Below, one piece after another: positions 14,526-44,616 of a stretch of 64,000 nucleotides of DNA. The stretch lies in the NCBI GenBank assembly GCA_905250025.1, contig CAJNOJ010000015.1, positions 496,001 to 560,000 of the forward strand, read 5' to 3'. Numbering within the stretch: the first letter of the stretch is position 1; the number at the start of each line of letters is the position of its first letter. Under the pieces are notes generated by a model. That model had not been told where the DNA came from. It saw nothing but the letters and a program-made list of their open reading frames with translations, and ran no database searches. The stretch is from Adineta ricciae (taxonomy: Eukaryota; Rotifera; Eurotatoria; Adinetida; Adinetidae). The position numbers and the translations under genes were made by a program.

Positions 14526-16260
14526 ATGACATCGACAGAAAAAATTTCAACAACACATAACGAAACAGGAGCATTCCCTGTAAGTAGACATTCATTTAGT
14601 TCTACTACTACTATCATTCAACCTTTTGTCTAATCATAGTCATTTCGTTCGATGAATGATGGTGATACACCGAATGAACAGTATCGATTTGATTCAACTC
14701 CACCTATACATTCTTCTCATTTTCAAAACGTACTTTTATCTTCATCCTCATCGCCAAGCGTTCTTCGAAATCCGTCACCACCGCCTGCTGATGATCTCAC
14801 TCGAGCAGATATGGTGGGAGATGAAATGTACTCTAAATCGTGGTTCTGTCAAGTACTTCTCAAATTAATCAACGTAAGAGTCGCATTCCGATTTCATTGA
14901 AATCAATCTCGTATTTTAGTTCGTTGCACCTGAACAATTACAAGATGAAATCTTTGCAAACATTCGACAACAAGGTGATAATTTTCTAACGACTAATTCT
15001 CATAAGAAACAAGAATTAGATGAAGCATTCGAGTCTGAACTATGCGAATTATGGGATGTTAGTATGAGTGCTGATGTTGCACATCTGTTAATTGAATTCA
15101 ATTCACTCGATTTGTTCAATGTTGTTCTCATCGAATGCAAAGACAAACGCTGTACGGAGATTGTTCTTGGCATTCTATCCAATCTGGCATGTTGTAAACG
15201 TAATCTCTCATCGACGAATCAAATGAAAAGTGTTGCTCAATGTATTATCGAACATTCGAATCTATTTTCAACGATTCTCTCTATTTTAACAAGCGATGAT
15301 TATTCCGATTGTCCAACGCTCGTTCAACTATTTCGGTTAATCTACACGCTCTTAGTTCGACAGGATACGCGTTACTTTATGATCGAGCATATTCAATTAA
15401 CCTTTGAACCTTTATGTTTCATTTTACAATCGTGTTGTAATAAAGAATTATTAGAACAATGTAGCTGTTTACTACGTGTTTTATTAGATGAATGTAATTT
15501 ATTCGATACTAATGAACAAAATGAAGCTGCTTATCTAGTCTTAACATCGATGACGACGGCAATTAGCGCTTCACTGGAAAATGAAACGTTCACAATCAAT
15601 TCTATCCTAGAAAATCTTTTCAACTGTTTACAAATCTATACCACACATGAACATTGCTCACAAATGTTAAACGATCACTGTCAAATAATTATGAAATTAG
15701 TTGAAACAACGTTGAAATTCTTAGTTCATGATGATATTGTACAAATTCACGGCGTGTTGTTACTATCATGTATATCGATATGTAACTTTTTCATTTATAA
15801 AACGGGATTGAAGATGGTTACTAAAGAACTATTGGAATATTTCCTCATCATCGGACATGCGTGTTACAAAGAAAAACAAAGAGACGATCATCGTAAACAC
15901 GCTATGCGTCGTCAACGGTCGCGAACCCATTCGCATTCATCGAATAAGAGAAAGGACATGGATATCACTGGCAAGGCAAGTTCGAATAATGACAATGAAG
16001 TTTTATCAAAAAGTGACAATCCATTAACCAATATTGAGTGGGAAGAAGATGCTGATATCGAGCAAACAAATAATGAAGATTTGACTGGTGCGTCTTATGC
16101 ACTTGTCGACGAAATATTTCTCATACTTTTTCATCATGGTCTTCGGCAAGAAACATCAGTATTTACACAATTGAATCAAGATCAACGTGAACTTTTTCGA
16201 AAATTAATCAAACATTTCTGTAATATAGAAAAACGACTCGATCAAATGTTGAATTTGTAA
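14526..16260 (+). CDS. SAAL1: SAAL1-like protein (armadillo-type)
   Basis: Three exons (14526-14579, 14640-14873, 14920-16260), all in phase. After a low-complexity Ser/Pro start comes the family core: ELCELWDVSMSADVAHLLIEFNS, LFNVVLIECKDKRCTEIVLGILSNLACC, matching SAAL1 (human LWDMSMDEDVALFLQEFN, ICVGILGNMACF). The remainder is a helical repeat array, with a charged insert near residues 375-425 (RRQRSRTHSHSSNKRKDM, then an acidic stretch). In vertebrates SAAL1 is linked to synovial fibroblast proliferation and its molecular role is unclear. A very short ORF (ATG TTA AAA TGA) lies just upstream of the chosen start at 14518. It ends the five-gene run; AATAAA at about 16311. Confidence 0.85.
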
Positions 16261-16372
16261 ACGACATGAATCATTCCTCTTGTGCGTATTTGTCATTTGA
16301 CTTATTGTAAAAATAAAGTAAAACATGTCATTTCTTCTTTTCTAAAAAAACCACACTATCCTCGTTTTTTGC

Positions 16373-17419
16373 CTATTTTATTTCACGATTTGAAATCACA
16401 GAAAATCGTCGAGTACCAAAAATCGGTGCTATAGATATACGTGGATTGTCATTGTCCACGGTATCAATATCAACGTCAGTTTCTTCGTTATATTCTTTTA
16501 ACATTCGCCGTAGTTTTCCTTCTCGCAAATGTCTCGCATATTCAGCATTCATTTTCGTAATTGAATCTAGGATTAACTTCCAGCCAGTAACAAATAAAAA
16601 CAAAGCCATCAAAACTTGAACAAGATCATCCAAATGTGCGAACTTATTCAAAAACGTCACACGATCCCAAAACAACAATGGAAAAGCCATAATTAACCCG
16701 ATCAACGAGTTCAATGCATCAGCCATCAACGCTGTTGATTTAATTTGTTTACTAAGAAAAATTTTTATAATCGATAATAATGTAAAGACAACAATGTGAA
16801 CTAATGAGTAGGTAAAGACAACAAGATCAGGACGAACGGATTTAGCTAGGATCATATTTTGAATTGATCGTGATTCAATAGCAAGAAATGAACCAATGAA
16901 CAATGCTCCGATAACACAACAAGCTAATCGATCACGACGATGCATATCGGCAACCTTCTGTGCTGTTAAATGCCATCCAACGAAAGCTGTGCATATCGAA
17001 TCCATCAATGTATCTACTGAATACGAAAAGCCGACGAATGTTTTCGATCGAATACAATTAATGAATGCTGTTAGACCAAGACCAATATCTAAAAGGAATG
17101 AAACTACGCAGCACCAAAAGGCGACACGACGAAACCGTTGGAAATGAATAAAACTGTGCGAATCGGTATGCAACATCCGACCACCTTGAGCACTATACTG
17201 CCGTGATGCTTTCTGTGGTGCAGCCAGAACAGTTAAAATTTCATTGTAATTCGATGATGTTGATGGACTATGTACACGACTTCTGAAAGCTAACGATTCA
17301 TTTCCTACTGATTGTCTTAGTGAATTTGAAACAGACGGCGTCAATAAAGAATTTTGAACGTTTCTATTCGAACATCCACTATCACTAATTCCTGGTTCAG
17401 TGCCATTTTCTGATGCCAT
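16373..17419 (-). CDS. TMEM163: TMEM163-like zinc transporter
   Basis: An intronless gene of 348 aa starting at the ATG at 17419 (MASENGTEPG). The disordered N-terminus of about 100 residues is followed by six hydrophobic segments. The cation-diffusion-facilitator-like pattern is visible: YSVDTLMDSICTAFVGWHL (Asp-x3-Asp pair) in the second membrane segment and STALMADALNSLIGL (ADALN) later. The layout matches TMEM163, a vesicular/plasma membrane zinc transporter related to the CDF family. C-terminal tail: KLRRMLKEYNEETDVDID. The stop overlaps an AATAAA-like sequence. It faces SAAL1 tail to tail with 112 bp between stops, so the 3' UTRs probably overlap. Another CDF-like protein is possible. 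Confidence 0.75.
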   Translation of the reverse strand: MASENGTEPGISDSGCSNRNVQNSLLTPSVSNSLRQSVGNESLAFRSRVHSPSTSSNYNEILTVLAAPQKASRQYSAQGGRMLHTDSHSFIHFQRFRRVAFWCCVVSFLLDIGLGLTAFINCIRSKTFVGFSYSVDTLMDSICTAFVGWHLTAQKVADMHRRDRLACCVIGALFIGSFLAIESRSIQNMILAKSVRPDLVVFTYSLVHIVVFTLLSIIKIFLSKQIKSTALMADALNSLIGLIMAFPLLFWDRVTFLNKFAHLDDLVQVLMALFLFVTGWKLILDSITKMNAEYARHLREGKLRRMLKEYNEETDVDIDTVDNDNPRISIAPIFGTRRFSVISNREIK

Positions 17420-17702
17420 GCAATACACTGCTCACTAATGATTGTTTCAGATTTTGATGTTTCGTATGCGTGCATAACCGTACATTTATCTTTCAGATTC
17501 TAATCGAGCAAATCGATGAACCGAAACCCACTCTTCTCGTTCGTCCTCCCATGCTTACATACATTCACAAATACACATCACTATACATTAAATGCATATA
17601 TTAAGATAAACAGAAGAAAAAAATTGCGGACAGATTTTTCGCTTCAGTCCGCGTTATGACATCGAGATGAAATATGGAAAACGAAAGCAAAGATACTTGT
17701 TT

Positions 17703-18488
17703 TTACAAAGTTTTAGCCAATAGTTGACAACGATCATGTTCGCCAGCTAAACTCGCTAAACGCTTTTGGTCGTATTTTGCATAGATGATTTCATCATAGA
17801 TTTGAAAGCCTTGTTTACGAAATGCTTTCGAAGAATAGAGACTTGTCGCTTCGGAAAACGCACCGGTTAAATGCAATACTGTTTTAGCATGTTGTATACT
17901 CGCATGAATCAATTTCTCTGTTAAACGCAAACCACGATAGTGTGCATTGATAGCAATAATGACGACATGTAATAAACGATTAGTTTTCAGTTGATCGAAT
18001 AAATCGATGTTTTGATGTACATCTTTGAGAACAGTCAAGATATAACGTAACTTTTCCGAATGGAATTTCTCAATATTGAATTGATCGTTGTCTTCCGAGC
18101 TCGAGTATGGTAATCGTTGCTTGATGATGTTTAGTATGACACCAATGACTTTCTCTGTTTGAACATCGACGGCAACGAATGAGCATTGATCTTGTATGGC
18201 AAGAGATACGATTAATTCAGTGAATTGAATGGGTTCGTGAGGTATCTCGAATGCTAAGCACTTGTTTAATGGCTCATCACGGAAAAACGTATCGACAACT
18301 AAATCGTATACCTCTTTTCGATGTGCATCAGTCATGAGACACAGCGCAATCTCTGGAGGTTTCATCCATGTTGCTGACATCGGTGGCGTTGACGGACATG
18401 ATGATGATGACGATGAGAAATCAATATCATCAGTTGGCAAAGTAAAATATCGTTCATTGAAATGCTTTTTAAATAACGAAGAATGCAT
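17703..18488 (-). CDS. Arylalkylamine N-acetyltransferase-like (GNAT)
   Basis: An intronless gene of 261 aa from the first ATG (18488). The frame is open upstream to 18563 but without ATG, so an upstream exon is possible. The GNAT fold is recognisable: substrate-side motif FFRDEPLNKCL (insect aaNAT FFxDEPLN), the strand CSFVAVDVQTEKVIGVILN, and motif A at INAHYRGLRLTEKLIHASI. The usual Q/RxxGxG/A loop reads YRGLRL here, lacking the second glycine. Insect-type enzymes of this family acetylate dopamine, serotonin, octopamine and similar amines using acetyl-CoA. The substrate cannot be told from sequence. It lies 283 bp upstream of the TMEM163-like gene on the same strand. Confidence 0.75.
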   Translation of the reverse strand: MHSSLFKKHFNERYFTLPTDDIDFSSSSSSCPSTPPMSATWMKPPEIALCLMTDAHRKEVYDLVVDTFFRDEPLNKCLAFEIPHEPIQFTELIVSLAIQDQCSFVAVDVQTEKVIGVILNIIKQRLPYSSSEDNDQFNIEKFHSEKLRYILTVLKDVHQNIDLFDQLKTNRLLHVVIIAINAHYRGLRLTEKLIHASIQHAKTVLHLTGAFSEATSLYSSKAFRKQGFQIYDEIIYAKYDQKRLASLAGEHDRCQLLAKTL

Positions 18489-19622
18489 TGCTCCGGCCGC
18501 TGTCGAGAACTTCAACTGAAAATAATGCTCTTTATATATGGAGAAAAGCGTGTGTTCTATCAAATGAAGAGAATCAATAGAATCTCCAGGCTCTCTATTT
18601 TCCTAGATAGGGAGGAAAGAGTAATCGTAATTTTCTCAACGGAAATCAACTGAAGAGATAGCGCAACAAACATGCGTATCGCACTGTGATTTCTTTGCGT
18701 CGATTAAGTATATGACGAGAAGGAAACAAAGGCAATGTCGCATATCTATTCTTTGTCTCGCATTCAAACAGTTAATATTGCATTTCTATGCCTAGATTAT
18801 GAATAGAATAAAAGACTTCGTTGGTTTGATTCGATCGAGGACTAGAAGTATAAATATACTTTTCCAAGGAAAATAATAACATCCTAAACAATCACAGTAC
18901 TGTTCAAATAGAGAGCGACGGCGTGATGGCTTTGTTGGTACCGAAAGGGAAAGAATGTAATTTCTTTTTTTTTCTCGACATGTTCATAAAAATCTTTTCT
19001 ATAGAAAAAAAAATACATAAGAAAAACGAACATGAGAAAAAAGATAAAGCAAATCGAAAGAAAAGAAAACAGAAAAGAAGAAGAAGAAGAAGCAGCGTTT
19101 TATTTATTCAGAACTATGAAATAAGAAGGAAATAAACGAATAGTGGATAGATAATGTTCGAATAGCACAGATCGTTTTTCTCTTTCTGCAATGAATATAT
19201 ATATATGTATAGAGAGGGAAAGGTGGACACTTGCCTAGAAACTATTTGTAAACAAATGTACTCAAATCAACTATGAAAAGGACAGGGGAATGAATATGTA
19301 TGTAGATGTAGGAAACAGTACCACTTCTGATTTGTTTTTTTTTCTCTTCTCAAGTTCATTTCGCACGTCCAAAGCACCTTGACTAATCATAAGAGAGAAC
19401 AACACGAGTAGTTGAGCATGCGTATACACACACAGACAATATAACAAAGCTACTCAGTTGAATGATAATTCAAAACAAGGCAAAAAGAAAGAAAATATAA
19501 AAAAAAAGAGAGAAAGAAAAGACAGAAGAAAGAATTCTCTAGCATATATGCATATAAATAAGAGAAGATTGTTCGATGGTTTTGTTCTCAAGAGAAATAC
19601 AGTTTCGATTTGCGTTTTTGAT
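18489..19622. other. Intergenic: filamin 3' UTR and NAT upstream region
   Basis: 1.1 kb with no credible gene. The part next to filamin (about 19100-19622) should be its 3' UTR: two overlapping minus-strand AATAAA signals lie at 19099-19108. Purine-rich A/G tracts fill 18990-19090 and 19470-19540. The remainder is the likely promoter of the N-acetyltransferase gene. Confidence 0.5.
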
Positions 19623-22600
19623 TTAGACAACTTCGATATGCCATGGAGAACCTGGAATATGTTGATCACCCCACTTTACAATCAACATATATTCGCCCTT
19701 TTCTCGGACAGTCTAAATTACCGAAAAGCAAATCTAGACAACGAATAAAATATGAATATCAGCTTACATATTGAACATTATATTGATTATTCCCAATGTG
19801 TTTAATGAACACTTCTTCGCAGGGAGCTTTCGGGCCGAATACACCGACCATTAACATTGCATTACCTTAATGAAAATCAAATAGAACTCGATATTCGACT
19901 GTAAGATTAATTGGAAGGAACTTACCACCATCACGTGTGTCAACTGTGAATGTTGCTTTTTCATTTCGATATGCACGTGATAGACCATCTCCGGCTGCTC
20001 GCACACGACTGGCGTCAACGACTGCATAGTTATTATTTCGTGAACTTGATGAATAAGATGTCGTTTTTTCGATAGTATCGTATTTTGTATGAGAAGTAAT
20101 GTTTCCTTGAGATCGTTGAACGTACGATGACGAAGATGTTGTCATTGTAGTCAAGCCACCATCTACACCAGCATTTCCACTACTGCGAATTGTACTCGTA
20201 CCACCACCTGAATCAAAATTCAATAAGTTTCTACAGAAATATATTGTTGATAATTTTCTTTACCTCCAACTGTACATTTGAATGGACTACCAGCAATGTT
20301 AGTACCAGCAAATTTAATTGAAATAAGATAATCACCCGGTGCGGTCGGCGTAAACGTGACACGATAGCCTGAAAAGATATGAATTGATTTAGAATGACGA
20401 AGACGAATTCTTTGCACACAATCATCTACCTTCAGCTACTTCTCGACAATCGAGTTGAACTTTTGATGGTCCATCCACTGTCACAGCTAACGCTCCAGCA
20501 CCAGCATTAGTTGTGTCAATCAAAAACTCACAAGGTTCACCTAAATGACATATCTCAGCAATCAAATAGCACATATCGATGAATAACATACCAGTTTCTC
20601 CTTGATATAAACCGGAGCCAGAAGCAAATACTCGACCTGGATCAGCATTGGCTTGGCCGACAACAACACGAAACGGTGAATCCGGTATGTCGCGTCCGTT
20701 AAAACGCACGTGTATCCAATGAATACCGTTTTCTTTTGGAATAAATTGAATAGCATAGTGATCGTGTTCGATTTCTTGAACAACACACGATTCTTCAGCT
20801 CCGCTGGGCGCAGTGACGCGTGCATCAACACGACCGCGTGCACCATTGACATTTACTGAAAACGTATATTGACGATTGATTTCTAATCCTTTGGTTTTGA
20901 GACTATGTATGGTTAATTTTCTTGCGTCACCAAATGGTGGGACGATCGATACATTGAACGGTGAATCAGGAATATGCTGATCATTGAATTTAATTGAAAT
21001 TTGATATTCGCCTGCTTCGGGACATACATAGGAAACTCCACATGAGCCGTCTTTACGGTCGAAGAAGTCGATTTCAGCTTTGGCTGGACCTTCAACAGCA
21101 ATAGCTAAACCACCCGCACCCGCTTCACGCGTGTAAATATTGAATTCATCTGAAATGAATTCACGTCGATGAAGCATATCATGTTAACAAAAAACGAACG
21201 TACTTGTAGCGTTGACTTCGCCACGTTGTAGACCACTACCACTAGCACGAACTTTGTGAGCACCACCACCTTGAAGTGGACCAACAGTGAATTCTGAAGA
21301 AAAATAAATTATATGATTAGTATTAAATGAGCTTTGATCTTTGTGATTTGCTATTTACCAAAAGGACTACCAGGAATATGAATATCTTTGTGCTTCACAC
21401 TAACTGTATGAACACCCATTTCTTTCGGAACAAATCTGATTGAATAGTTATAATCTCCAACATCGCTAGAATAAATTAGCTCATGTTTGATAGAGTGACC
21501 ATTTACTATAAAGACTTACTTAATTTCACAGTTTTCTAAACGTCCAGATGGGCTTGTTACATAGGCGCTCATATCAAACGGTGATGTACCTAACAAATTG
21601 ATAAACAATTCAAATCTTGTACAATCAAAGTATAAAAATTGTACCAGGAATCTTCAATGACAATTCACATTGACTTCCGATATGTGTAATATCGGCAGCA
21701 CGACGTTCGCGTGTGATACTTTCACGTAATCGATTTGAACTTTGACCGCCAACATTGACTGTGAATGGACTTCCTAAAGTAGAAAATGATCGTTTTTATA
21801 TACAAAATATTTACTATTCATTCGCACGAACTAACCAGGGACGTGTTTATCAGCAAATTTGACATTGACAATATAAATTCCAGGTTCGGTTGGTTTGAAC
21901 GTGACGAGACATGAACCATCTTCATTATCGTGACATTCAATATCCGCTTTGGATGGCCCTTCGATCGAAAGCGATAATCCACCGTAACCTATGCGAATAG
22001 ACGAAAATAACTTTCCCGATTTTCAATGTACTTCGCTATGCTACTAACCAGCATCACGTGTAATAACAGTAAATTCATTTGTTTGATTAGCATAACCTAA
22101 ATGATAGTTTTTTTTAATCATCAATCTATTCTTCGAACTATACCATTACCTTCTTGTAAACCTCGTCCAAATACTTTAACTTTACTAGCATCTCCAATTT
22201 CGGATGAGCCAACATGAATACGAAACGGGCTGTTTTTAATATGCTTTCCTTCTCGGTAGACATTCACTAAATGGTCACCAACTTCTCTTGGGATAAACGA
22301 TATTCCAAGACTTCCATTGGGCAGTTTTTTCAATAGGCATGGTTCTTCTACCCCACTGGGCGATCGAATCGTAGCAGTTAAGTCATGTATATCATATTCA
22401 GTGACGCGTAAACTAATTTCACTTTGGCTGCCAACCATAACTTGTGATTGTCGTTGTTTTTCGACTGCCGGTGGAACGCCAGTGACTTTCGCAGTGAACG
22501 GCGAACCAACGATATGTTTGTCAGCGAATTTAACTGTAATGGTATATTCGCCTGGTGCAGTCTTCAAAGTAACGTTAATATTAAGAAGATCTCTTGAATC

Positions 22601-25600
22601 TATTAAACTATTTCAACTTACCGGCCAGTATGTGACATCACATGTTCCATCTTTGTTATCTTTACATTGGATTTCCGCTTTCGAACTGCCTTCCACAGCA
22701 ACGGAAAGACCACCAGAACCAGCATCTTTAGTCACAATACGAAAGTTACATGGTTCATCGCAGACACCATGACTAAGACCGGGCCCGTATGCAGTAACAT
22801 AACCAGTTTGGACTTTGTCGACATGAAATTTGAATGGAGAGCCGGCAATTGGCTGTCCTTGATAGAAAACATCGAGTTCATGCAAACCAATCTCCGATGG
22901 TTGATATTTGATCGAAACAGTTCCATCTTGATTGTCATCAATAATTGGGGTATGAAATTTGCCGTTGGGTGTTCGAATTAATGCTAAAAAAACAGGTTTT
23001 CAAACATATATTTACATATGACAATCTAATAGTTATGTGATAAAATTTCTTTCAAATCTACTTGTGAATAGTACTTCTCATCCCATTATTCCATAAAATA
23101 AAATTCTTCTCATAGCGAGCGAGTGTCAAGAGAGAGTCAGAAAAGGAAAGCAAGATTTGTTTTGTAACATCATACCGGTTATATCACCAATCTGACCTCC
23201 ACCAACTGGTAGGCGAAAATCAACGGGACGATATTGAGTTGTTGTCGTTGTCGTCGTGGTTGTTACAGTTTCTGTTGTTTGAGTACGGTTGTATTTACTA
23301 GAATCACCAGCCTTTTGAGGAAAAAAAAAGAAAAGAATCGTAAACAAATGAATTCTATTCAAAGATCGTTTTGGGTGATCAAGAAGAAGCAGAATGGTGC
23401 TTGAAATGTGAAGTGAAAGACAATAACTATATTGAACTCGCAATTGTTTCTAGATACGATCGATATTCCTTTTCTTCTCTCTCGCTAATCTTTTTTTTAT
23501 CGATACTTTCATTCTGTAATCTTAAACGATTTATGAATTTGCTTGACACATATGTGAGATAATTGAATTTAAATATTCGCATACCTCGAGATCGTCTGCA
23601 CCCTAGAAGAAGGCGAAAAAGAAGGATCATATAAATCAAATAATGAACCATAGTTCGGCATGGATGTATGCACGTACACTTCGCTAAACTATGTTCATCG
23701 AGGACGAAGAAATCAAAATTGGAGAATAGATTTCATTACAAACATTCATATTCATAGGGAAAGTATTTTTTAAGTAGGAAGAGAAAGATCGATTTGGATG
23801 TCAACATACCGTGACGATGAAATCACCACCTGGAACATCTTGTCCACCAAATTTAATTTTGACAACATAATTTCCGGGATTATGTGGAGTGTAGTATACA
23901 TTGAATGTTCCATCTTCGTTATCGACAATATCAATATCAAGATCACTGCCGGCAGTCGAACGAATACGACATGTTACCGCGCCTGGACCAGCGTCATGCG
24001 TATCGACAGTAATCGTATATTCTTCACCCACTTGGACACTAGAATTGGTGCCACTGCCTGTAAGAAAGAGCAAAACTAATGATCGACAAAAAAAACAGCT
24101 AATCTCTTTACCAGAAAGGTGGCATTTAGTTGGATCTCCAGTCGGCTCCACTTTTACGTTGAACGGAGAATTAAGAACCGGAATACCGCCATAATTGACA
24201 TTAATTATATATCGACCGACATCATTTGGTTTATAGATAACTTTGTATGTGCCGTCTTTATTATCGATTAATTTCGAAGAAACTAAAACGCCTTCGGGAT
24301 TCTAAAAGCAGAAGTGAAATCATGAGTAAGTATGATGGCTATTCTCTTTACCTTTATCGAAACTTCGGGTTGTTCGAGACCAGCTTCACTTGTGTCAATA
24401 CGAAAAGAAGTTTCAAGTGAAGCAGGAATACCGTTACGAATACCGGGTCCGTCAACAACGACTTTCTGTGGTTCAAAACTCGGCAGAACTTGAACGTTAA
24501 ATGGACTAGTGAAATTTAAAGCACAGTTAATTCCCACTGTTTCTTGAAAGTCAATCAATATACATACCTTTGACGTACTGGTTTATCACTCCAGTTGATA
24601 TCAATACGATGTGGACCTTCGGTTTGAGGAGTAAACTCAGCTACGTAGACACCTTCCCCTCTTGGTCGAATGCTAGCTGGTTTGCGTCGGCCTGTAGTAC
24701 AAAACAAAAGAGAATTGTGTGTGCCCTTATCGAATGGAACAGGTTGGAAGAGGGGAGGAGAAGAGCGAGAGAGAAAGAAAGGAGAAAGTGGAAGAAAAAA
24801 GAAAAGATGTTATGTTTGCTGCTTAGATCGAAAATCAACTTCATATGTGAAAATGAAGAAGAGAAGAAATAAAAATACTATATGTGATATTGTTCATTTG
24901 AATCGCGAGAAGAGATGAATAGCAATTTAAGCTTCTCAAGTTGTTCTCATATGTCGAATTACCTTATCAGAGAATATAAAAAGCGAGTCAGAGAGGAAAG
25001 ATTTATCATCGTTTCAATTGAACAAAAATCGATGAAGGTTGAGAACCTTTTTGGCACGCGCACACGTACTTCTCAATACATATATGTATATATAGATGAA
25101 ATATAAAAGCAAACNACCGTGCCATCTTGATTGTCGTCAATAATTGGAGTATGAAATTTGCCGTTGGGTGTTCGAATTAATGCTAAAAAAAAGAGGTATT
25201 CAAACGTATAGTTACATATGACAATCTAATAGTTATATGATAAAATTTCTTTCGAATCTACTTGTGAATAGTACTTCTCATTCCATTATTCCATAAAATG
25301 AAATTCTTCTTATAGCGAGCAAGTGTCAAGATAGAGAAACAAAAGTTTGTTTTGTAACATCATACCGGTTATATCACCAATTTGACCTCCACCAACTGGT
25401 AGACGAAAATCAACGGGACGATATTGAGTTGTTGTCGTTGTCGTCGTGCTTGTTACAGTTTCTGTTGTTTGAGTACGATTGTATTTACTGGAATCGCCAG
25501 CCTTTTCAGAAAAAAAAAGACAAGAATCGTAAATAAATGAATTCTATTCAAAGATCGTTTGGGTGATCAAGAAGAAGCAGAATGGTGCTTGAAATGTGAA

Positions 25601-28600
25601 GTGAAAGACAATAACTATATTGAACTCGCAATTGTTTCTAGATACGATCGATATTCCTTTTCTTCTCTCTCGTTAATCTTTTTTTTATCGATACTTTCAT
25701 TCTGTAATCTTAAACGATTTATGAATTTGCTTGACATATATGTGAGATAATTGAATTTAAATATTCGCATACCCCGAAATCGTCTGCACCCTAGAAGAAG
25801 GCGAAAAAGAAGGATCATATAAATCAAATAATGAACCATAATTCGGCATGGATATATGCACGTACACTTCGCTAATCTATGTTCATCGAGGACGAAGAAA
25901 TCAAAATCGAAGCATAGCTTTCATTACAAACATTCATATTCATAGGGAGCGGTTTTTTGAGAAGGAAAGAAAAGATCGATTTGGATGTTCACATACCGTG
26001 ACGATGAAATCACCGCCTGGAACATCTTGTCCACCGAATTTGATTTTGACAACATAATTTCCTGGATTATGTGGAGTGTAGTATACATTGAATGTTCCAT
26101 CTTCGTTATCGACAATATCGATATCAAGATCGCTGCCGGCAGTCGAACGAATACGACATGTTACCGCACCTGGGCCAGCGTCATGTGTATCGACAGTAAT
26201 CGTATATTCTTCACCCACTTGGACGCTAGAATTGGTGCCACTGCCTGTAGGAAAGAGCAAAACTAATGATCGGCAAAAAGAGAATAGCTGATTTCTTTAC
26301 CAGAAAGGTGGCATTTAGTTGGATCTCCAGTTGGCTCCACTTTTACGTTGAACGGAGAATTAAGAACCGGAATACCGCCATAATTGACATTGATTATATA
26401 TCGACCGACATCATTTGGTTTGTAGATAACTTTATATGTACCGTCTTTGTTATCGATTAATTTCGAAGAAACTAATACGCCTTCGGGATTCTAAAAGCAG
26501 AAGCGAAATCATGGATAAACATGATGATTATTCTCTTTACCTTGATCGAAACGTCAGGTTGTTCGAGACCAGCTTCACGTGTGTTAATACGAAAAGAAGT
26601 TTCAAGTGAAGCAGGAATACCGTTACGAATACCGGGTCCGTCAACAATAACTTTCTGTGGTTCAAAACTCGGCAGAACTTGAACGTTAAATGGACTAGAG
26701 AAATTCAAAGCACAGTTAATTCCCACCGTTTCTCGCAATGCAATCAATACACATACCTTTCACGTACTGGTTTATCACTCCAGTTGATATCAATACGATG
26801 TGGACCTTCGGTTTGAGGAGTAAACTCGGCTACGTAAACACCTTCTCCTCTTGGTCGAATGCTAGCTGGTTTGCGTCGGCCTGTTGTACAAAACAAGAGA
26901 GAATTGTGTATGCCCTTATCGAATGGAACAGGTTGGAAGAGAGGAGGGGAAGAGCGATAGAGAAAGAAAGGAGAAAGTGAAAGAAAAAAAAGAAAAGATG
27001 TTATGTTTGCTGCTTAGATCGAAAATCAACTTCATATGTGAAAATGAAGAAGAGAAGAAATAAAAATACTATATATGATATTGCTCATTTGAATCGCGAG
27101 AAGAGATGAATAGCAATTTAAGCTTCTCAAGTTGTTCTCATATGTCGAATTACCTTATCAGAGAATATAAAAAGCGAGTCAGAGAGGAAAGATTTATCAT
27201 CGTTTCAATTGAACAAAAATCGATGAAGGTTGAGAACCTTTTTGGCACGCGCACACGTACTTCTCAATACATATATGTATATATAGATGAAATATAAAAG
27301 CAAACGATGAAGAAGAAAAGGTTAATGAAACTCGATTAGATTGTAATGGTAGCACTGTCCGTCCTTCATTGCCTTGGCATTGCTTTTGCCTTCCTTTGCA
27401 CTTTTTCTGGCTTCAATACATATATGTATACACACTCACATCGATGTTCTTTACATCTTTACCTTTCAATCAATCGATTTTTTAACAATGTTGTTTTCCT
27501 TTATCGTCTTCATTCGATTACTTTCTTTTTCTTTTCGATTCAAAATCGATATAAACGTTAAATTGATTCAAATATGCAATTCTATAAATAGCTTCTCTTC
27601 GTCATAAATAAATACATTTTTAAATAAATATACATATGCATTTATGACTGTTAATGAGCAAGGTAAACTAGAGTTCTTCTGCTCTCGAAAAGAAGAAGAA
27701 TTTGGAATGGTGAAGGCTTACCGTGCGAATCAGTGATGTCAATGGATGGATTACCAGGTCCGGCTGTTTGACCATCGATAACGATTTCTTGTAAGGTGTT
27801 CGCACGCATAGTGGAACTCATTTTCACATTAACATGACTAGCATCAAGTCGATCACGTACATTGACATGAAACGGTGAGCCTGTATAATTAAAAAAGATG
27901 AGAAGTTTGATAAACACTGAGCACTTTTATCATGTGCAAACAAATGACACTTACCTGGTACATGTTGTTCAGCAAATTTAATTGCTATATCATATTGACC
28001 GGCTTTTGTCTAGATTAAAAATAGAAAGTCAAAACATGAAAAAACCTTGCATTTGTTTGTCTTCATCTCTTACAGGTAAATATTCCATAATGCATGTACC
28101 GTCTTGATTATCTTTGCAGATCATTTTCGCTTCCGATGGCCCTTCGATAGCTAGGCCGAGACTTCCTTGACCAGCGCCTTTGGTTTCAATTGTAAATGTT
28201 GTCGGTTCGTTTGTTGTTGCACCTTCGAGGCCCGGTCCATAGGCACGTACACGTGCGGCATCATAACCGGATGCAGCATTGACACGAAATGGACTGCCTG
28301 GAACAGGAACATTCTCGTACGTTACATCCAATTGATGCATGCCTACGAGATAATATATAAATGAATGACAGGGAATTTCTCTGGCTGAATGGCTAACCTG
28401 GTTCATATGGGGCATACTGTACTTGATAAGTTCCATTTGACATGTTTTTCACTGGACATCGAACAGGTCGACCACTGGGTGATGTTAATAGACATTCAAC
28501 ACGACCTGTACCACTGCTAGTCACGGATTTAGCATCAACAGTAAACTCCGTTGGACTTTCGAGAAAAACGCCTAAAGGAAAATCAAGAATGTATATCATC

Positions 28601-31600
28601 ATTGAAAACAAGTCTAATTCAGAAAGAAATAAATAAAATACGAAGCGTCCCAACATGCACCTATTTCCGAAATACAGTCCATCACCGAATAGAATATGAT
28701 ATATTCTTACAAGGATTTTTGAATAATATCGATTAGTAGTAATTTTAAAAAGATCTAAAAGGGTTTTCTGAGGGTCATATATACATCGATCTAGAAGAAT
28801 ATTGTTTTTCCTTGTTCATTAGGTTTCAACGTGCAGGTCTTTCGAATAAAACCACGTCACATAAATCGTACAAGAGAGAGAGAGGCAGAGAAAGTAAAAG
28901 CAATGATAGTTCATGCAGGCGAGATAAGACAAGACATGCGGGTTTTGATGGTTAAATATATGGTTGTTGTACTCGTTAAGTACACACCGTTTGTATCAAG
29001 ACCAGGACCATAACAGCGTATGCTACGCGTATCAAGATCCGGTCGTACAGCAGCATGAAATGGTGAACCAGCGATGTGTTTTCCTTCGTATAAGATATTG
29101 ATATTGTAATTACCAGGGGCTGTATTTCATAAGATACGATGAAAAGTCATTAAAATAAGACGATTGAAAAAAAAAGCTACCTGTCGGATGGTACGTAACA
29201 CGACAACTACCATCGTTATTATCTTGATAGTCAATTTTGGATTCTGAAGGCCCTTCAACTGTGACGCCAAGCTGACCGTTACCGGCACCACGTGTGTCAA
29301 CAGTAAAATCAGCTGGTTTATTGACAGTACCTTGGGATAGACCGGGCCCATAGGCACGTACTTTACTTGCATCAAGCGGCTCAATAGCTGTAACTTGTGC
29401 TGGACGTACCGGTATTGTATACACATCTGGTTCAATGACGTAAGTGCCCGGTTCAGGCACATTGAAACGAAGATTATAACCTTGTGGAGCTGGTGTAATA
29501 ATTGCATCCTGAGCGTTGCCGGAAGGTCCGACTACGCGCGCACGAATAGCATTTGCTGGTATTGGACCAGCTGCTATCGTATTCAATGTTACCTGCGCAG
29601 GCTGTCCAACGGTGGGTGCTATGATTGGGGAAAAGAGAGATAGAACGTTTGTAAGAGGAAAAAAATGCTTGAAAAAAACAGATGCAGCTACATAGAGCGA
29701 AGGCAACTCGATCTAATCAACTTTTAAACTTCGAAGAACATGAAGAACTTACGTGTTTCGAGGCCTTCGATACGTATTTTACTGACATCAACGGTTGGTT
29801 CGACATTAACTTTGAGTGGTGATATAGGTATTTCATTATCGCTGAATAGAACACTAATGCAATGAACTCCAGGTGATTTTGGCGTATAGTCTATTTTAAA
29901 TGTTCCATCTTGTCTGTCATCGATTGTAAATGGAAGATCTTGATTTTTAGCATCGGTTAAAGCAATTGAGATATCTCCTGAAACGAAGAAATCAATTAGA
30001 CGATTAGTTCTACGCATTCATTTTCCTATAGCATGAAAATCTAATCGAAAAAGTTTATTAATCAAATACGCAAGCAAGCAAGCAGTTAAACTAGGACAAG
30101 CAAAATGCATCTACCAAACAACAGCAACATTCACAAGTGTTACGCGTGCTTTCGGTCTGTATGTAGCATGTAATCCATGATGTTTATCATCATTTTGTAT
30201 CGCTAATGCATACTGTTGTTGATTATCTAGATCTTGAATATTGATCTTGTATGGAATGATATCGTTGTCACACGTGTCAATATCGAGAGAATCAAGTGAG
30301 CGAAAACGATGGTTGAATTTAGTAGGAATGACTAAGAAGAGCATGCAAAGAAGAGTTTATTAATCATGCATTTGTTAGTAAGTGACAAAGAAAGAGCATG
30401 AAAAGCAGAATCAAAACGAAAAAATGCAATCCTGTTACTAACCTGGTCCAGCTTCCTTACAGTCAACAGTAAAATGAGTTGGATTATTCATTTTTACGCC
30501 ACGCTCAACACCTGGACCATAAACACGTACCTTCGATGGATTCGAAGGTTCAGTAGGCCAAACCTATATGATATATAAATTAGCAATAACAAAAGAAATG
30601 GGAAAAGGAGTTCTGTACTCTAAATGGACTGTTTGGAATAGCTACACCACCATAATCAATAAGAATACAATGACGATTGGGATTTGTCGGTGTATAGCGA
30701 CATGTATAAGTGCCGTTACCATTATCGCGTACATGAACATCAACTGGCTGATAGTCTTGATCGATAGCTTGTACATGTAAAGGAGCATCGCCGGCATTGT
30801 GTGTATCAACAGTAAACTCTGTTGGCTTATTGATTATCTGTCCGGCTGGTTCAAGACCAGGACCGTAAGCTTTGACCTAAGCAACAATTAGTATTTAGTG
30901 ATATTTTCATTGGCTAGTGCTACTTTATTCGAATCGAAGCTTCCAGGTGGTTCAATCCAAGCCATGAATGGTGAATGTGGTATATCTTCATCATTACATA
31001 AAATATGTACTGCATATTCACCTGGAATGGTTGGCCAATAACGAACGTTTGCTGAACCATCACCATTATCATTACATTCAATACGTGCTTGAGATGGTCC
31101 TTCGATTGAAAAACCTGGCAAAAAAAGGAAAAATCAACAGTCGAATATGCTGATGAAAACAGAAGAAAATGAAAGTCAAATGCAATCCGTGCATCATTCT
31201 CTGAGACCATGGGTAATATTCATGTCAAACACACACTTACTAATATCGCCTAAGAAATTAGTTTAAAAATGAATTTCAATAAAGATCACTGTCAATGATC
31301 GAACATTTATCTTACATACCTAATGAACCTGTTTCACCATTCGTTTCAACAACGAAATCTGCTGCACAACCGACAATACCACCTTCGAGACCTGGTCCGA
31401 ATGCTTTAATTCGTGTATCTTTAAATGGTGCGACCGATACAGGAAACGGACTCTTAGGTATATGAGCACCACCATATGTAATATTCACTGTATGAGGCCC
31501 TGCACGATTTGGTACATAACCGCACTCGTACGTTGTACTATTTACTTTAGTAACACGACAGGGTATTTCCGAACCATCTAGATAAAATTCGTCGTTTATT

Positions 31601-34600
31601 AATCAATTCGGCGGCACATGACTATTACCTGGTCCAGTGACAGTTGCTTTCATAACGCCTTCTCCAGCATCTTTGGTAATAACACGAAATTCTGCTACAT
31701 CACCAGTGCGAACACCTTTTGGTTGAATACCTCTTCCATAGGCCCGACATTTCTTGGCATCAGATGCTGTAGAACGAGGAAGAAAAGAGAAACGAATATT
31801 AACATACATGCTTATGATATTCAAAAAACTACTATCCAATCACCATTTTAAGAGAAAAAAAATATCAGTAAAACATTCCGACTGAATCCCCAACTACAAA
31901 AAAAAAATTGCACACAAACCCTTCTGATATTTATACGTCGATGCAATATCGAAATTCATAGAACTCTTTGGTTTTTTAAATTCCATAGACGAATGGTAGC
32001 TCTCATCGTTTCTTGAATATTTTTCTCCTCTCTCAATCGATGAGAAACGTGATTTTACTAGAGACAAGTTATTTCGACGTTTTCGCGAATGTTTCATACA
32101 TAACGAATCGAGAAGTTCTACTTACATGGGGAGACGTTGACACCAAATGGACTACGTGGTATAGGCCGGTCAGCAAAGAATACATTGACTGAATGAAGAC
32201 CAGGCTCGCGTGGTACATATTCGCAACGGAATTTGCCTGGACTTGTTTGTTTGACTGATACAGGAACGGCGTTCTCTCGATTATGTGGATCGACAACAGC
32301 CACTTCTGCAAGACCATTACCAGCATCTGGGAATCAGTGATACATTGATAGAATTCTTTTCAAGATAGAAAAATTATGGTAACTTACTTGTAGCATCAAT
32401 TTCAAACCAGGTTGGCTTATCGACCATCACACCGTTGGGCTCCAAACCAGGTCCGCTTGCTCGACATTGACTGGCATCACCTGATTTGCCCTCGATAAAG
32501 GGTGAAAACGGAGACTTAGGTACTTCTTGTCCGGCAAACTTTACGATAACCTATTGCAAATTCGAACGATATAAACACTTTTCCCGTTATTTTCTTTGAA
32601 ATATCAATTACTTTATATTGTCCTTCCAACGTTGGATAATATGTGCAATCATATGTTTGATTTTTATCATTTCGAGGAATCACATCGCACTAAACGGAAG
32701 AATATATGTTGACTAGTTTGTAACAAAAACACTAATTTACTTTTTCTTTTTGTCCTCTTGGATTGAGCACGATCACATCGACAGTACCCTTACCAGCAGC
32801 AAACGTTTCGATATGAAACTTAGCTGGTGCATCAACATGATTACCAGTTGGTTCAATACCTAATGAGAAGACAAATGAAATAATTATTCGGAATCAGCTA
32901 GTTAGACGAACGCGAACGACAATGTATTCGTTTAATCCACTGTTCTTCAATCGTATCTTTCGATTTCTTTATATGACGCTTAAACGTATAAGATTTTGTA
33001 TTACCAGCTACATCCGATGAACTCATTATTTAAAATGACTTTTCGAAAGAAGAAGAAGAAGAAGAAGGAAAAAAGGCGGTGACCATGAATGAAGAACAAT
33101 GGCTAATGAAAGAGACAGAAGAAAATGGCATCAGCTGTCGGCGCTCGTCTTCTCTCTCTCTCTCGCATTCCCCTAAAGATACAAATCGTTCGATTGTACA
33201 AACCTTTGCCATAACATCGAACACGTGCTGAATTTGTTTTTGGCCGAATAGGTGCTCCTGGTTTCAGTTTAGCATTTGGATATTGTGATAAGTAAGTCAT
33301 CATTGATTGTTCATCAACTTTCGGATTAATCATTTCATGTGGTTCAACTAATTGTGGCACACCTAACCATCGTTCGGCTAAATCCATCGCTTCTTTCGCA
33401 TTTTCCAATGCATTCTTTGGATCACGATCATTCCAATCCGGATAAAGTCCTTTTAAAAGAAAATTTTGTCAATGCACTCAAACAGGATTATTTCTTTTTT
33501 TTCCGTTCTAATGAGGATTACGAAAGTGTATATGTGTGTACATACCGGGTGCGCATGCGTCAACGAGTGCACCAATAGCACGACCATCATTCCAGTCCGA
33601 TGTAAAATTTGAAACAGGTAATTCTGGTGGTAGTTTTTCTTGCACCCAATTCATCAACTTTTGTTTGGGTGTGACATCTTTGCCCGAACCAGGTGCATCG
33701 GGTTGTTCGAATTCCCACATTGGTAACGAAATCGAATAATGTAAAATCAATGTCCATATTAAACCAAGAATAAGTTTTAATTTTCCATCAACAATATGTG
33801 AAGCATCTAAACAGACATTTTCGTTTTGAATAACAGATCGACAACATCGAGACGACCTTGCCGTTAGAAAGCTAATCTATGAGTCAGAAAATGATTGAGT
33901 AATAAAAAGTTATACGATGAACAGCTTCACGTGACGCTTCTCACAAAAGGTTTGAAAGAAAAATCGATATCAAAATGCATTTTGACGTTAATTGCATAGT
34001 CAACCACACCTTGAGGATATGTCAATTCAATCTTCGCAATAATCACTCACTTCTACACTCAATTCTGAACAATATCAATCGTGTAGTAAATAACTGCTAA
34101 GATAAAAAATTTCAAAGAACAATCGCAGGAAAGTAAGTTTTATTGCGCAGATAGTTATCTGTAGACAAATTCTGCTCTTCAAATCCTTGAGTTTTGTTGA
34201 ATCGCTCGAAATCAGAACAAGAGGGTTAAGGACGATATTTTCTTGACTTTTTTTTTCTCGATCAATTTCTATCCCGAACTGATAATTATATCGCTTGTTT
34301 TTTTTTTCGTCTATTTGATTTGGTGAAACCTGAAACGTTGTGTTTTCGAACTAATGTTTCTCTTTCTTAAAATAGGTCACTATCAAACAACGAAAAACAC
34401 TGATGGAAGAAAATCCAACTTACCAATATTAACAAGACGTATACGTTCAGTATTTTCCAAGAAATCTAAGACGATAGAAACATTTTCTAATTTGTGAGGA
34501 CGTAAAGTTGGCCTTTTGTTATAACGTGGAACTTTCTTCTGTGATAAAACTTCAATTAATGAAATCAGATTCAATCCATCTCCTAATTCAAGCTGTAGAT

Positions 34601-34936
34601 CATCTATATGTCGATTGAGCAATTTGAGATGTTCGTTTGCCCAACGTGTAAATGTATTTTGCTGTATTCTTTTCCATGGAGCATCATCTGCTAATTCTCG
34701 CTGCATATCTTCATAAAACTCTGTTGAGAAGAAAAATAAATGAATTCAATGTCATTGGTATTGATTGAAGATAAGATGAAATAATATGTGTTTTTCTCGT
34801 ATCTCTGTTTACCTTCTTCTGTGCGTCCGAATTCGTCTTCTTCAGTAGGTTCACTGTGTTCGTTACGTTGAGGATTTTCAGGTCCGCCTCCTCCACCTGA
34901 ATAGCCGTTTGCCGACTGGTTGTTCGTCGTTGACAT
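19623..34936 (-). CDS. FLN: Filamin, actin-crosslinking protein
   Basis: A large gene with about 45 exons. The N-terminal actin-binding domain has two calponin-homology domains: CH1 at 34720-34424 ([29 protein letters not shown]) and CH2 at 33806-33204 ([61 protein letters not shown]). About 22 filamin Ig repeats follow, each with the YGPGL... / AGxG...EGPS / DNxDGT / HIPGSPF pattern. The last nine match vertebrate repeats 16-24 in order, including the repeat-16-type [19 protein letters not shown] after a poly-Thr hinge, a Ser-rich hinge before the end, and the dimerisation repeat ending [13 protein letters not shown]. Repeat 7 (about 29400-29760) is degenerate. The 22917-27305 part is present twice (see repeat entries), so the assembled frame is broken there. 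Filamin crosslinks F-actin and anchors membrane receptors. Confidence 0.93.
22917..25114. repeat. Tandem segment, copy A (filamin exons and introns)
   Basis: A 2198-bp segment that recurs almost base for base as copy B. On the minus strand it holds the second half of one Ig repeat ([13 protein letters not shown]), two complete repeats, the poly-Thr hinge and the first half of the repeat-16-like domain. It differs from copy B by scattered substitutions and small indels, more in introns than exons, with some amino-acid changes ([16 protein letters not shown] against [16 protein letters not shown]). It ends exactly at the N. Confidence 0.92.
25115..25115. other. Single N at segment junction
   Basis: The only ambiguous base in the window, located exactly between copy A and copy B. 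Scaffolding programs commonly insert a one-base gap when two contigs are predicted to overlap but could not be merged, so it probably marks a contig join rather than a real base. Confidence 0.85.
25116..27305. repeat. Tandem segment, copy B (filamin exons and introns)
   Basis: A 2190-bp segment matching copy A at an offset of 2191-2199 bp. At its left end it begins in the middle of the exon coding DDNQDGTV, directly after intron sequence of copy A. The exon therefore has no in-phase splice donor on the minus strand. At its right end it runs smoothly into unique sequence (GATGAAGAAG...), so this copy carries the authentic upstream flank, while copy A carries the authentic downstream flank. Confidence 0.92.
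30115..30331 (-). other. Filamin-like half repeat inside a filamin intron
   Basis: Within the intron 29980-30442, between exons that already join into a complete Ig repeat ([16 protein letters not shown]), there is a 217-nt open block with an acceptor (TTCTTAG) and a donor (TTTG/GTAGAT). Its translation includes [20 protein letters not shown] and [21 protein letters not shown], resembling strands C-G of a filamin repeat. The donor phase does not match the next exon, and reading on gives TAG at once. It may be a relic exon or an alternative terminal exon. Confidence 0.4.
33047..33067. repeat. GAA trinucleotide microsatellite
   Basis: About six to seven GAA units in a filamin intron. Confidence 0.75.
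33807..34423 (-). other. Long filamin intron between CH-domain exons
   Basis: 617 nt, with donor GTAAGTT after VNI and acceptor TGTTTAG before ASHIVDGKL. Both flanks are in phase 1. I see no coding or RNA element inside. It is ten times the usual intron length here, so it might hold regulatory sequence. Confidence 0.55.
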
Positions 34937-35165
34937 TTTTTTTCTTTTTCTTTCTGTTCAAAAGCTTTTTTTTTCTTTTCTTCTTTAGCGACGACCCGCA
35001 ATAGTAGTTGAGATGGTTGTACGTTTTCGAATCGTAGATATATGATTCACCTAGTCAATGAGAAGAAAAGGAAGAAAAACAGAACAAATGAAAATTTTTC
35101 AAAAAAAAAATTCGTTTATATGTCTCTTATTCGTGTACATGTACGTGTATGAATATGTATATTTA

Positions 35166-35188
35166 TACACACATACACACACACACAC
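35166..35188. repeat. CA dinucleotide microsatellite
   Basis: About 11 AC/CA units with one interruption. Confidence 0.8.
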
Positions 35189-37785
35189 GAAAGAAACGAA
35201 CAGAATAAAAATCTTCATCACAAGCCTCTATTAAAGAAGTAGTCAACATACGTGAAACAGAGAAGAAATGAAGAGCGGAGAAACAAAGGCACTTGTGTTA
35301 AATGTGTGCACGCGGTGAAATATTTTTGATAAAAACAAAAGAGAATGACTTAAAATACGGACAAACATAAACTCATGCAATCGACAAAAATGCCATTACA
35401 ATCAAGATTTCGATCGAATTCTTATGCCAATGAAGACAATGGAAAAGAAATCAAGTGACTCAAATAATCTCATTAGATTTGATCTTTTCGTCTTCTAATC
35501 AAATAACAAAAGATTAATTTGTCTTTGTGGGAATAACTATAGAAACATGACCAATGAAATAACTCATCAGGAACTACATATTTCCAAGCAAGCGACATCT
35601 CGCTATTGATTCGTACCGTATTTATCAAACGAAAACGTGACTAGTCGCCACTACAGACAAGGATCTAAGTACATGAATGTTAACTGCTCGATCAAGAAAA
35701 GGGAAATCTGACTATACGTATAATTACTAGTGTATGCTATGCTTGCAAAAATAACTATTGTAATTGCATATTCAAACTAACAGACAATTTGAATACTTTG
35801 ACAATCTAAAAGAATCTACATACAATACAAAACCAAAACAACGAATCAATCTTGTTCCTCCCTTTATATGACACAGCGGAGTACTGACTCACACCTTTCT
35901 TATTCATTTTTGTAAAGATGAATTCTAATAGGTAAAACAAGTAGGTGTATTGATTCATCATTCTTATTAACTTAAACGATTTTCTTGTTAATCACGAACA
36001 ACTTAAGTAAAAACGATTTATCTGATCAGTCTATAGTTATTCTCAACTAAATATCAAATGATTATGCCTTTCATCTCAATACATTCGATTCTTCCTTTGA
36101 CATGGACAAATATATAATGAGCGACATTTCATCGCACGATAGTATATCAATGGTCGTTCTCCTCTCGACTTTCGACATGGCATTGTGTTGAGCACTCGAT
36201 GAGTGGCATCACTAAGCTTCGATAGATTGACAATGTCAAAAAAATTAAGAGACTCAATGCAAAACTATACCTCATAAGCCAAAAATGCTGCCATCCGAAC
36301 GTCATGGATATTTGTGCTAACGGTGAATTAATATAGGACAGCTGTAAAACGGTTTCATATATGTACGTATAGATGAAATTTCTTTTACTATAATATGATT
36401 AAAGATCGTATTTACTGTCTTTAGTTTTTTCTCTTTTTACCTAAGATACTCTCAAGTGTGTGCTAGTATACGAAAGATTATTCCACTTCAACTTCAAGTA
36501 CACTTTTTAACCTTTTCGTCTTCTTTATGCCGACAGAGGAGGGTAGGGGGCAAGAGACACAGAAGGGAATTCCTCCTATTCATGTGTTTATACTTGCAGC
36601 ATAAGTTCTCATGTGTAGTAATGTTACCTTTTTCTGTCTCGAACCGTTTGTGAATTGAACAAACGCTCTACTATGAAGTTACAATTGACGTGAAAACAAA
36701 CAATAAATGTGTATTAACGCACTTAGATAAGACGAATATATGTATTTGTATGCATAGAAGATAGAATATATATTTCAAATATAGAAATATCTATGACGTG
36801 GGCAGTCTATCTGTCGCAAGAGGAGGACAAATGCCTAAAAAGAAAAACATTGAGTAGAAAAGGGCTATTTCTATGTTTTTTTTCTCTTCATTTCTAGAGA
36901 TGAAAATAGAATAAGAAAAAGGAAACACCATTCCAAATAAATATGTTTCTATGCTTCGGATATCGAAGTAGAGAAGTTTCTTTTTCTCTTCTTCGTCTTT
37001 CTACTTAGCATCAGTCATTAACCTAAGGAAGAGGATCACAGAGAGACAGCGTGTAACCGAAAAGATAACCCGAGAGGCAAAACGCGCTATGTGCACGTAT
37101 GGTTAAGACAAAGACAAAGACAACAACAATAACACGAACAGATAAAATACCAGTAATATCCAAGCATCGCAAGAAATTCTTCTTTTTCTTGTCTATACGT
37201 ACATTATATATACAACCAAACATATGTAATAGAGAAAAAGAGAGAAGAAGAAAGATATTACATTGCTTCTACTATATACATGTGTGTGTATATATTGCTC
37301 TCTTTGTTGCGCCTACTGTACATATCTCATATTTTACAGCGGATGACTAACTGCAAATATATTACAAGAATACTAATATTTCAGCACGAGGATTGAAATG
37401 CATCTGAAAAAAAGAAACATAGACTAGAATGAAATTCGTTTTTGCTTTGAAATATTCGATGCTCCCACGAGTATGTGACATTGCTATAAGATGAAATTGG
37501 AGAGTGTGTCTATATGAATGATTATAAATTTACATATTTCTCTTCGAACAGGTGTGTATATGTTTAATAGAAATACATTGGACATGTAAGTTCTATCTGA
37601 TTAGCCTGTTCTCTTCCTTTGCTTTGATCGAGTTGTTATTTCTGTTTTTTTTCTATTTATCGGACAACTTTTATTACATTAATAGTACAAGCAAACTTAC
37701 AAAAAACGAATGTAATTGATATTACATAGTAAATACCATCATTAGATTCATTTATATTTCATTGATATACTTAGACGTCGAAAAC

Positions 37786-37805
37786 GAGAGAGAGAGAGAG
37801 AGAGA
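37786..37805. repeat. GA dinucleotide microsatellite
   Basis: Ten uninterrupted GA units. Confidence 0.85.
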
Positions 37806-38010
37806 CGCACTGCAGGTGACACGCTGTCTTTCTTCTCGCCAATGAGATGTACATATATAGATACGTTGTTATCATTTTTGCTAATTCAATAGAAAGTTTT
37901 CTGGGGGAAAACATCTAAACAAAACTAGATACAAGAGATGATTATTGTTTTATTAGTATACCAGAAAAAGAACAAAAGTACACAAATATAGAATGAGAAG
38001 GTAATTTCAA

Positions 38011-42610: not shown

Positions 42611-42630
42611 ATCTTTCGGTGGGTAGACTA

Positions 42631-42632
42631 CT
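42631..42632 (-). promoter_or_regulatory. Putative trans-splice acceptor before TIMELESS
   Basis: On the minus strand TTCTTCGTCTTCAG is followed by 20 nt and the TIMELESS ATG. The upstream same-strand gene stops only 211 bp away. Confidence 0.35.
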
Positions 42633-44460: not shown

Positions 44461-44616
44461 CATCAATTCGAACTGAAAGAATCCATTACCGATAGTGTTA
44501 TTACAATTCATTCAACAAAATGAAGAAAAGCAAAGGAAAAAAACTAACTGTGCGCCAAGGAATTTCTCGAGTCAATTTCAAAAATGATACTATTTTTATT
44601 TTACTAATAAGTTATG

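What the first reader, a model, noticed from the sequence alone, without database searches (positions are those of the whole stretch)
22917..27305. Filamin tandem duplication meeting at a single N is probably two alleles joined end to end
Seen: two 2.19-kb copies in tandem, including introns, with the only N of the window exactly at the junction. Copy B starts mid-exon directly after copy A's intron sequence, leaving a filamin repeat cut after DDNQDGTV with no in-phase donor. Copy A keeps the correct 3' neighbour and copy B the correct 5' neighbour. Differences are scattered and denser in introns. This is what happens when two overlapping contigs from divergent homologous copies fail to merge. 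If so, removing one copy restores a normal filamin of about 22 repeats, and the differences measure allelic divergence.
Basis: partly seen in the sequence, partly recalled or inferred. Interest (0 to 1): 0.75.

Follow-up and report, generated by a model that had tools for sequence, protein, structure and literature searches.

The report
Two filamin alleles joined in tandem
A stretch of a cytoskeleton gene appears twice in a row in this animal genome, most likely because the assembly placed the two versions of one stretch end to end; it looks like an ordinary assembly error rather than a real duplication.

Summary
Copy A (22917-25114) and copy B (25116-27305) align end to end at 94.4% identity and meet exactly at the window's only N (25115), 0 bases from it on both sides. 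Evidence: (1) the copies differ like alleles (Ks 0.159, Ka/Ks 0.07; published homolog mean Ks 0.135 in the bdelloid Adineta ricciae, the probable source); (2) the ohnolog on contig C30 has the block once, same exon structure, Ks about 1.1; (3) own-genome searches found no further copy of the block, or of 19.4 kb of flanks, at allelic identity; (4) the last 221 bp of both copies are identical, as at a heterozygous/homozygous boundary; (5) one copy alone gives an open filamin of 22 repeats (rough model). Three other single Ns sampled had no abutting duplication. Read depth and spanning reads could not be examined. Interest is low.

The parts
22917..25114 (-). Copy A: filamin exons 1-6 and part of exon 7 of the block, with introns; continuous with the left flank
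25115..25115 (.). The only N of the window: scaffold join between the two contigs (inferred)
25116..27305 (-). Copy B: the same block, second haplotype (inferred); continuous with the right flank
24894..25114 (-). Last 221 bp of copy A, identical to 27085-27305
27085..27305 (-). Last 221 bp of copy B, identical to 24894-25114
22622..22983 (-). Exon 7, complete in the copy A path; the left edge of the repeat (22917) lies inside it
   Evidence: same length, 362 nt, in the C30 ohnolog
25116..25182 (-). Exon 7 in copy B, cut to 67 nt by the junction; frame runs to a stop 13 codons on
24568..24691 (-). Copy A exon 1 (124 nt)
26757..26880 (-). Copy B exon 1 (124 nt)
23585..23602 (-). Copy A micro-exon 5 (18 nt); copy B counterpart 25773-25790; also 18 nt in the C30 ohnolog
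27722..27880 (-). Filamin exon upstream of the block, present once
19629..34949 (-). Approximate extent of the filamin gene (two CH domains plus 22 repeats in the single-copy reading); both ends uncertain

Best explanation
This is a false tandem duplication. The animal carries two divergent haplotypes of one filamin locus. The assembler built one contig from the left that followed haplotype A and ended in an intron, and another from the right that began in exon 7 of haplotype B. They overlap by about 2.19 kb at 94.4% identity, too divergent to be merged. The scaffolder linked them by read pairs, found a negative gap and set one N between them instead of merging them. Shown: the copies, the N, allele-like divergence, a single-copy ohnolog, no further allelic copy found in the assembly. 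Inferred: haplotype identity of the copies, read-pair linkage, the scaffolder's behaviour, the species.
For: End-to-end match abutting the only N with 0 bases left over on both sides. A/B Ks 0.159, Ka 0.0114, Ka/Ks 0.07; the 40 coding differences polarised by the ohnolog fall 16 in A, 14 in B, 10 unplaced. Published A. ricciae homolog mean Ks 0.135, median homolog divergence 4.55%, ohnolog mean Ks 1.267 (PMC5916493, passages); here A and B against the C30 ohnolog give 1.149 and 1.085. C30 has the block once, in order: exon lengths equal for exons 1-5 and 7, and 133 against 136 nt for exon 6, and a self-comparison of C30:405001-435000 shows no internal repeat of 150 bp or more at E<=1e-20. Own-genome search with 22917-25100 finds only A, B and C30; the flanks 16000-22900, 27400-33000 and 33000-39900 each find themselves but otherwise no match over 200 bp above 78%. 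Identical 221-bp tract at the right edge. Either copy alone gives an open, normally spliced frame. A rough single-copy model has 22 repeats. [quoted passage not shown]
Against: No reads were available, so halved depth and discordant pairs are untested. Of 3 other single Ns in 250 kb sampled elsewhere, 0 had an abutting tandem copy, so a lone N in this assembly does not by itself mean an unmerged overlap. Skipping the cut exon would leave an in-frame transcript carrying both copies. Identity (94.4%) lies below the 95% search threshold of Kelley and Salzberg. The species, on which the Ks yardstick rests, is inferred; an allelic yardstick from within this assembly was not clean. The published gap total of 65 kb for A. 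ricciae ARIC003 is more than single Ns at the sampled rate would give.
Confidence: 0.94

Rival explanations
1. A genuine tandem duplication of a filamin exon block, fixed in the genome. The cut copy of exon 7 has no usable donor and is skipped, so exon 6 of copy B splices to exon 1 of copy A and the rod gains about three repeats.
For: The B exon 6 to A exon 1 join is in phase and open over 753 aa; the copies are under strong constraint (Ka/Ks 0.07); the outer-neighbour topology fits.
Against: The junction coincides with the only N; divergence is close to published allelic divergence; the ohnolog has one copy; no further allele of either copy was found in the assembly; a fixed old duplication needs a separate reason for the identical 221-bp edge.
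Confidence: 0.04
2. A duplication present on one haplotype only, correctly assembled.
For: Not excluded without reads; one allele-specific tandem duplication is mentioned among true duplications in PMC9516828 (passage).
Against: Needs a duplication about as old as the haplotype split and the N placed at its junction by chance.
Confidence: 0.01
3. A chimera made by whole-genome amplification, or a mis-scaffolded paralog rather than the allele.
For: If the source is A. ricciae ARIC003, the DNA was whole-genome amplified (PMC7943196, passage).
Against: The only paralog found is on C30 at 70-80% nucleotide identity in pieces, far from the 94.4% between A and B; both copies sit in collinear context with C30.
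Confidence: 0.01

Closest known systems
Duplicated overlapping contigs (DOC), Kelley and Salzberg 2010 (PMC2864568)
   Different: 94.4% identity, below their 95% search cut-off; mate pairs not examined here.
False heterotype duplication / false exon gain, Ko et al. 2022 (PMC9516828)
   Same: Alleles assembled as neighbouring paralogs, gap between the copies, exons gained within one gene, favoured at boundaries of homozygous and heterozygous sequence (passages).
   Different: Their read-depth, read-pair and k-mer criteria could not be tested here.
Allelic (homolog) pairs of Adineta ricciae, Nowell et al. 2018 (PMC5916493)
   Same: Ks 0.159 against a published mean of 0.135; ohnolog Ks about 1.1 against 1.267 (passages).
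   Different: Here the two presumed alleles lie end to end on one scaffold. In the 2018 assembly only 2 homologous blocks on one scaffold are reported, both tandem (passage).
Animal filamin
   Same: CH domains and PF00630 repeats in the two sections scanned; the block matches filamin-C and filamin-A chains of the PDB in one linear series (7ouu at 101-291, 2k7p at 321-463 of the query; that these are human is recalled).
   Different: 22 repeats in a rough model; 24 in human FLNA is recalled.

Membership tests
False heterotype duplication (incl. duplicated overlapping contigs) | Duplicated pair lies adjacent on one scaffold with an assembly gap between the copies | tested here: met
   Single N at 25115 exactly between the copies
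False heterotype duplication (incl. duplicated overlapping contigs) | Alignment reaches both contig ends and exceeds 300 bp | tested here: met
   2.2 kb, 0 bases from the N on both sides; that the N marks contig ends is inferred
False heterotype duplication (incl. duplicated overlapping contigs) | Divergence in the range of alleles of the organism | tested here: met
   Ks 0.159 against a published homolog mean of 0.135 in A. ricciae; rests on the inferred species
False heterotype duplication (incl. duplicated overlapping contigs) | Over 95% identity (search threshold of one vertebrate pipeline, not a defining property) | tested here: not met
   94.4%; threshold. Their false duplications had a median identity of 98.1%, while published A. 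ricciae homologs differ by a median of 4.55%
False heterotype duplication (incl. duplicated overlapping contigs) | Haploid (half) read depth over each copy | not testable with these tools
   No reads available
False heterotype duplication (incl. duplicated overlapping contigs) | Discordant read pairs and 1-copy k-mers | not testable with these tools
   No reads available
Genuine tandem duplication | Continuous sequence across the junction | tested here: inconclusive
   An N stands at the junction; spanning reads, the real test, are not available
Filamin | Actin-binding CH domains followed by filamin/ABP280 repeats | tested here: met
   PF00307 (2 stretches) and PF00630 above cut-off in the two sections of the model scanned; 22 repeats by an HMM built from 14 of the model's own repeats

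The most novel reading that the evidence does not exclude
The duplication is real: an in-frame tandem duplication of filamin exons adds 290 aa, about three repeats, to the rod (22 to about 25). The truncated exon 7 is skipped, which keeps the frame because exons 1 and 7 both start in phase 1.
Probability: 0.04. Interest if true: 0.3.

Novelty: not a real feature. Interest (0 to 1): 0.08.

Why it matters
It matters as a correction. Annotation of this scaffold would give a broken or over-long filamin and a false exon gain. It also illustrates how haplotype divergence of about 5% can leave a local false duplication where an assembly otherwise shows a locus once. If the reading is right, the A/B pair is a small sample of allelic divergence at one locus.

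Tried and rejected
Rejected as evidence: the 'correct neighbours' topology, which a true tandem duplication shares. Rejected as decisive: the cut exon, because skipping it keeps the frame. A lone N as a general mark of unmerged overlaps was tested on the 3 other Ns found in the 250 kb of L007-L031 and did not hold: 0 of 3 have an abutting copy. One of the three (C1:113402) stands right after the end of a 982-bp near-copy, but both members of that pair lie on its left, more than 5 kb apart. L033-L038 hold no N, nor does L032; they were fetched for other reasons and are not in the count.

Internal allelic benchmark: of 4 other 10-kb loci searched in the own genome (L014, L023, L028, L029), 1 (L014) had a long partner at 92-93% (C254). 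That region also has a further 90% copy on C1, so I did not use it as a yardstick. These four searches, and the 15-kb search, did not list even the query's own place, so long partners may be missing from them and they are no evidence of absence. Queries up to 6.9 kb did list their own place, so I repeated part as with 33000-39900; it found itself and no allelic copy. The part 39901-48000 is thus not cleanly tested.

The telomere-repeat pattern search found TGTGGG arrays, but its backward control is the same cyclic repeat and says nothing. The prokaryotic promoter scan at the junction is irrelevant to an animal gene. Paper searches for a statement that SSPACE writes a single n at a negative gap: I looked at passages of two papers and did not find it; other papers listed were not read, and that behaviour is recalled. 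A search for Adineta ricciae with filamin gave 0 papers. A search on bdelloid palindromes and assembly artefacts listed one nematode paper that I did not read.

The gene model is rough: it missed the 18-nt micro-exon, kept one 54-nt intron in the reading, its first exons are doubtful, and its last four exons (19382 leftwards) are taken not to be filamin.

Full report
What is there. The window lies at C15:496001-560000 of a 130.46-Mb assembly in 1033 contigs. It has one N, at 25115, and one self-match at E<=1e-10: 22917-25114 against 25116-27305, 94.4% identity, with no base between either copy and the N. A global alignment of 2203 columns has 107 mismatches (78 transitions) and 7 indel events, unevenly spread over the block and absent from the last 221 columns at the right edge. 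With 114 differences placed at random, such an edge run arose in 1 of 100,000 trials.

What it encodes. On the minus strand the block holds six complete exons and part of a seventh of a filamin gene. Exon lengths match between the copies (124, 154, 190, 248, 18 and 136 nt); exon 7 is 362 nt in the copy A path and cut to 67 nt in copy B. Using either copy once gives one open frame through the upstream exon, the block and exon 7. A rough single-copy model has CH domains and PF00630 repeats in the two sections scanned. An HMM built from 14 of its own repeats finds 22 in it.

How different the copies are. Over 933 coding bases there are 40 differences: Ks 0.159, Ka 0.0114, Ka/Ks 0.07. Introns 1-6 differ at 7.4% (3.0 to 14.0% one by one), the partial first intron at 2.1%. 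Polarised by the ohnolog, 16 coding differences fall on A, 14 on B and 10 cannot be placed. So the copies diverged evenly and under strong constraint, as two working alleles would.

The ohnolog. Contig C30 (405001-435000 fetched) carries a collinear filamin; the longer pieces match at 70-78% nucleotide identity. In a comparison of C30 reading frames of 25 aa or more (E<=1e-8, best three hits each, 60% identity or more), the four frames of exons 1-4 match the window at both A and B; exons 5 and 6 gave no hit under that filter and exon 7 only its complete place in the A path; the other frames of the gene show no second copy. C30 has exons 1-7 with the same lengths except exon 6 (133 nt), and no internal repeat of 150 bp or more in the 30 kb at E<=1e-20. 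Ks to A and B is 1.149 and 1.085. The sister locus therefore has the block once.

Where the other allele is. Searching the whole assembly with 22917-25100 returned A, B and the C30 ohnolog (the tool scores only the best candidates). Flank pieces 16000-22900, 27400-33000 and 33000-39900 returned themselves and otherwise nothing over 200 bp above 78%; the highest short match is 85% over 115 bp. So this locus is otherwise represented once as far as searched, and the second haplotype shows up only in the 2.2-kb overlap. A 15-kb query and four 10-kb loci from elsewhere did not list even their own place, so I draw nothing from absences there; among those four, one has a long partner at 92-93%.

Which organism. 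Assembly size, GC of 34.5-38.1% in L007-L031 and 36.6% in the window, and the divergence pattern fit Adineta ricciae ARIC003 (135.6 Mb, 4302 sequences, GC 35.5%, gaps 65 kb; PMC7943196, Table 1 passage; SPAdes start, section 17). The held genome has fewer contigs than that, and the 65 kb of gaps are more than single Ns at the sampled rate would give. A glutamate receptor from this assembly has the chain labelled AvGluR1 as its best PDB match, E 2.1e-74 against 1.6e-41 for the next; that AvGluR1 is from Adineta vaga is recalled. The species is an inference. The assembly section names SSPACE and GapCloser for two Rotaria species and does not say which scaffolder ARIC003 had. Published figures for A. 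ricciae (homolog mean Ks 0.135, median homolog divergence 4.55%, ohnolog mean Ks 1.267) are from passages of PMC5916493.

Mechanism. Kelley and Salzberg describe this layout: two haplotype contigs with homozygous sequence on opposite ends, placed side by side, whose adjoining ends match; 82% of such candidate cases in chimpanzee align within 10 bp of the contig ends (PMC2864568, passages, section 14). Ko et al. name gaps between the copies, half read depth, discordant pairs and 1-copy k-mers as marks, and say boundaries of homozygous and heterozygous sequence are prone (PMC9516828, passages). The identical 221-bp edge fits such a boundary. [quoted passage not shown] That SSPACE writes a single n when the estimated gap is negative is recalled; searches, with passages of two papers, did not show it.

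What speaks against, and what does not help. Of 3 other single Ns in 250 kb of this assembly, none has an abutting tandem copy, so a lone N is not enough by itself. The argument from correct outer neighbours fits a true tandem duplication equally. The cut exon runs into a stop 13 codons past the junction and has no GT donor in the required phase, whichever base the N is. But exon 6 of copy B ends in the phase that exon 1 of copy A requires, so skipping the cut exon gives an open frame of 753 aa with both copies in series. A true duplication could therefore be tolerated, and the case rests on the N, the divergence, the ohnolog, the missing further allele and the identical edge. Reads were not available.

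Verdict. Assembly artefact, confidence 0.94; not a real biological feature; interest 0.08.

Noticed in passing
G000:C1:105890-106846 and 112423-113401 (loci L014-L015): A 982-bp near-copy (89.5%) in a Sec8-like exocyst gene (PF04048, PF20652) ends one base before a single N at C1:113402; a longer partner of the first copy at 92% lies on C254. Possibly another assembly artefact or a gene broken at a contig end.
   Followed up: partly
G000:C55:469313-469894 (L032): An ATP synthase A (atp6-like) match with 3 TGA inside by the standard code, open under the invertebrate mitochondrial code; GC of the 3.6-kb locus 21.5%, within a contig at least 469 kb long: a mitochondrial insert or a chimeric scaffold.
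   Followed up: partly
G000:C15:574177-574360 and 575447-575613 (L013): A 184-bp inverted repeat (89%) whose right arm holds the single N at C15:575611.
   Followed up: no
window 23585-23602 and 25773-25790: An 18-nt filamin micro-exon kept in both copies and in the C30 ohnolog although its sequence varies (GADDLE, GADDFG, GDMDVW).
   Followed up: partly
G000, several contigs (C124, C202, C256, C286, C536 and others): The ionotropic glutamate receptor family (PF00060) gives 73 matches in the assembly; 26 of the 73 rows lie in open frames of 700 aa or more, with several rows on the same contig.
   Followed up: no
The genome search, own genome, queries of 10 kb and more: Queries of 10 and 15 kb did not list their own place while queries up to 6.9 kb did; absences in such long searches should not be trusted.
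   Followed up: partly
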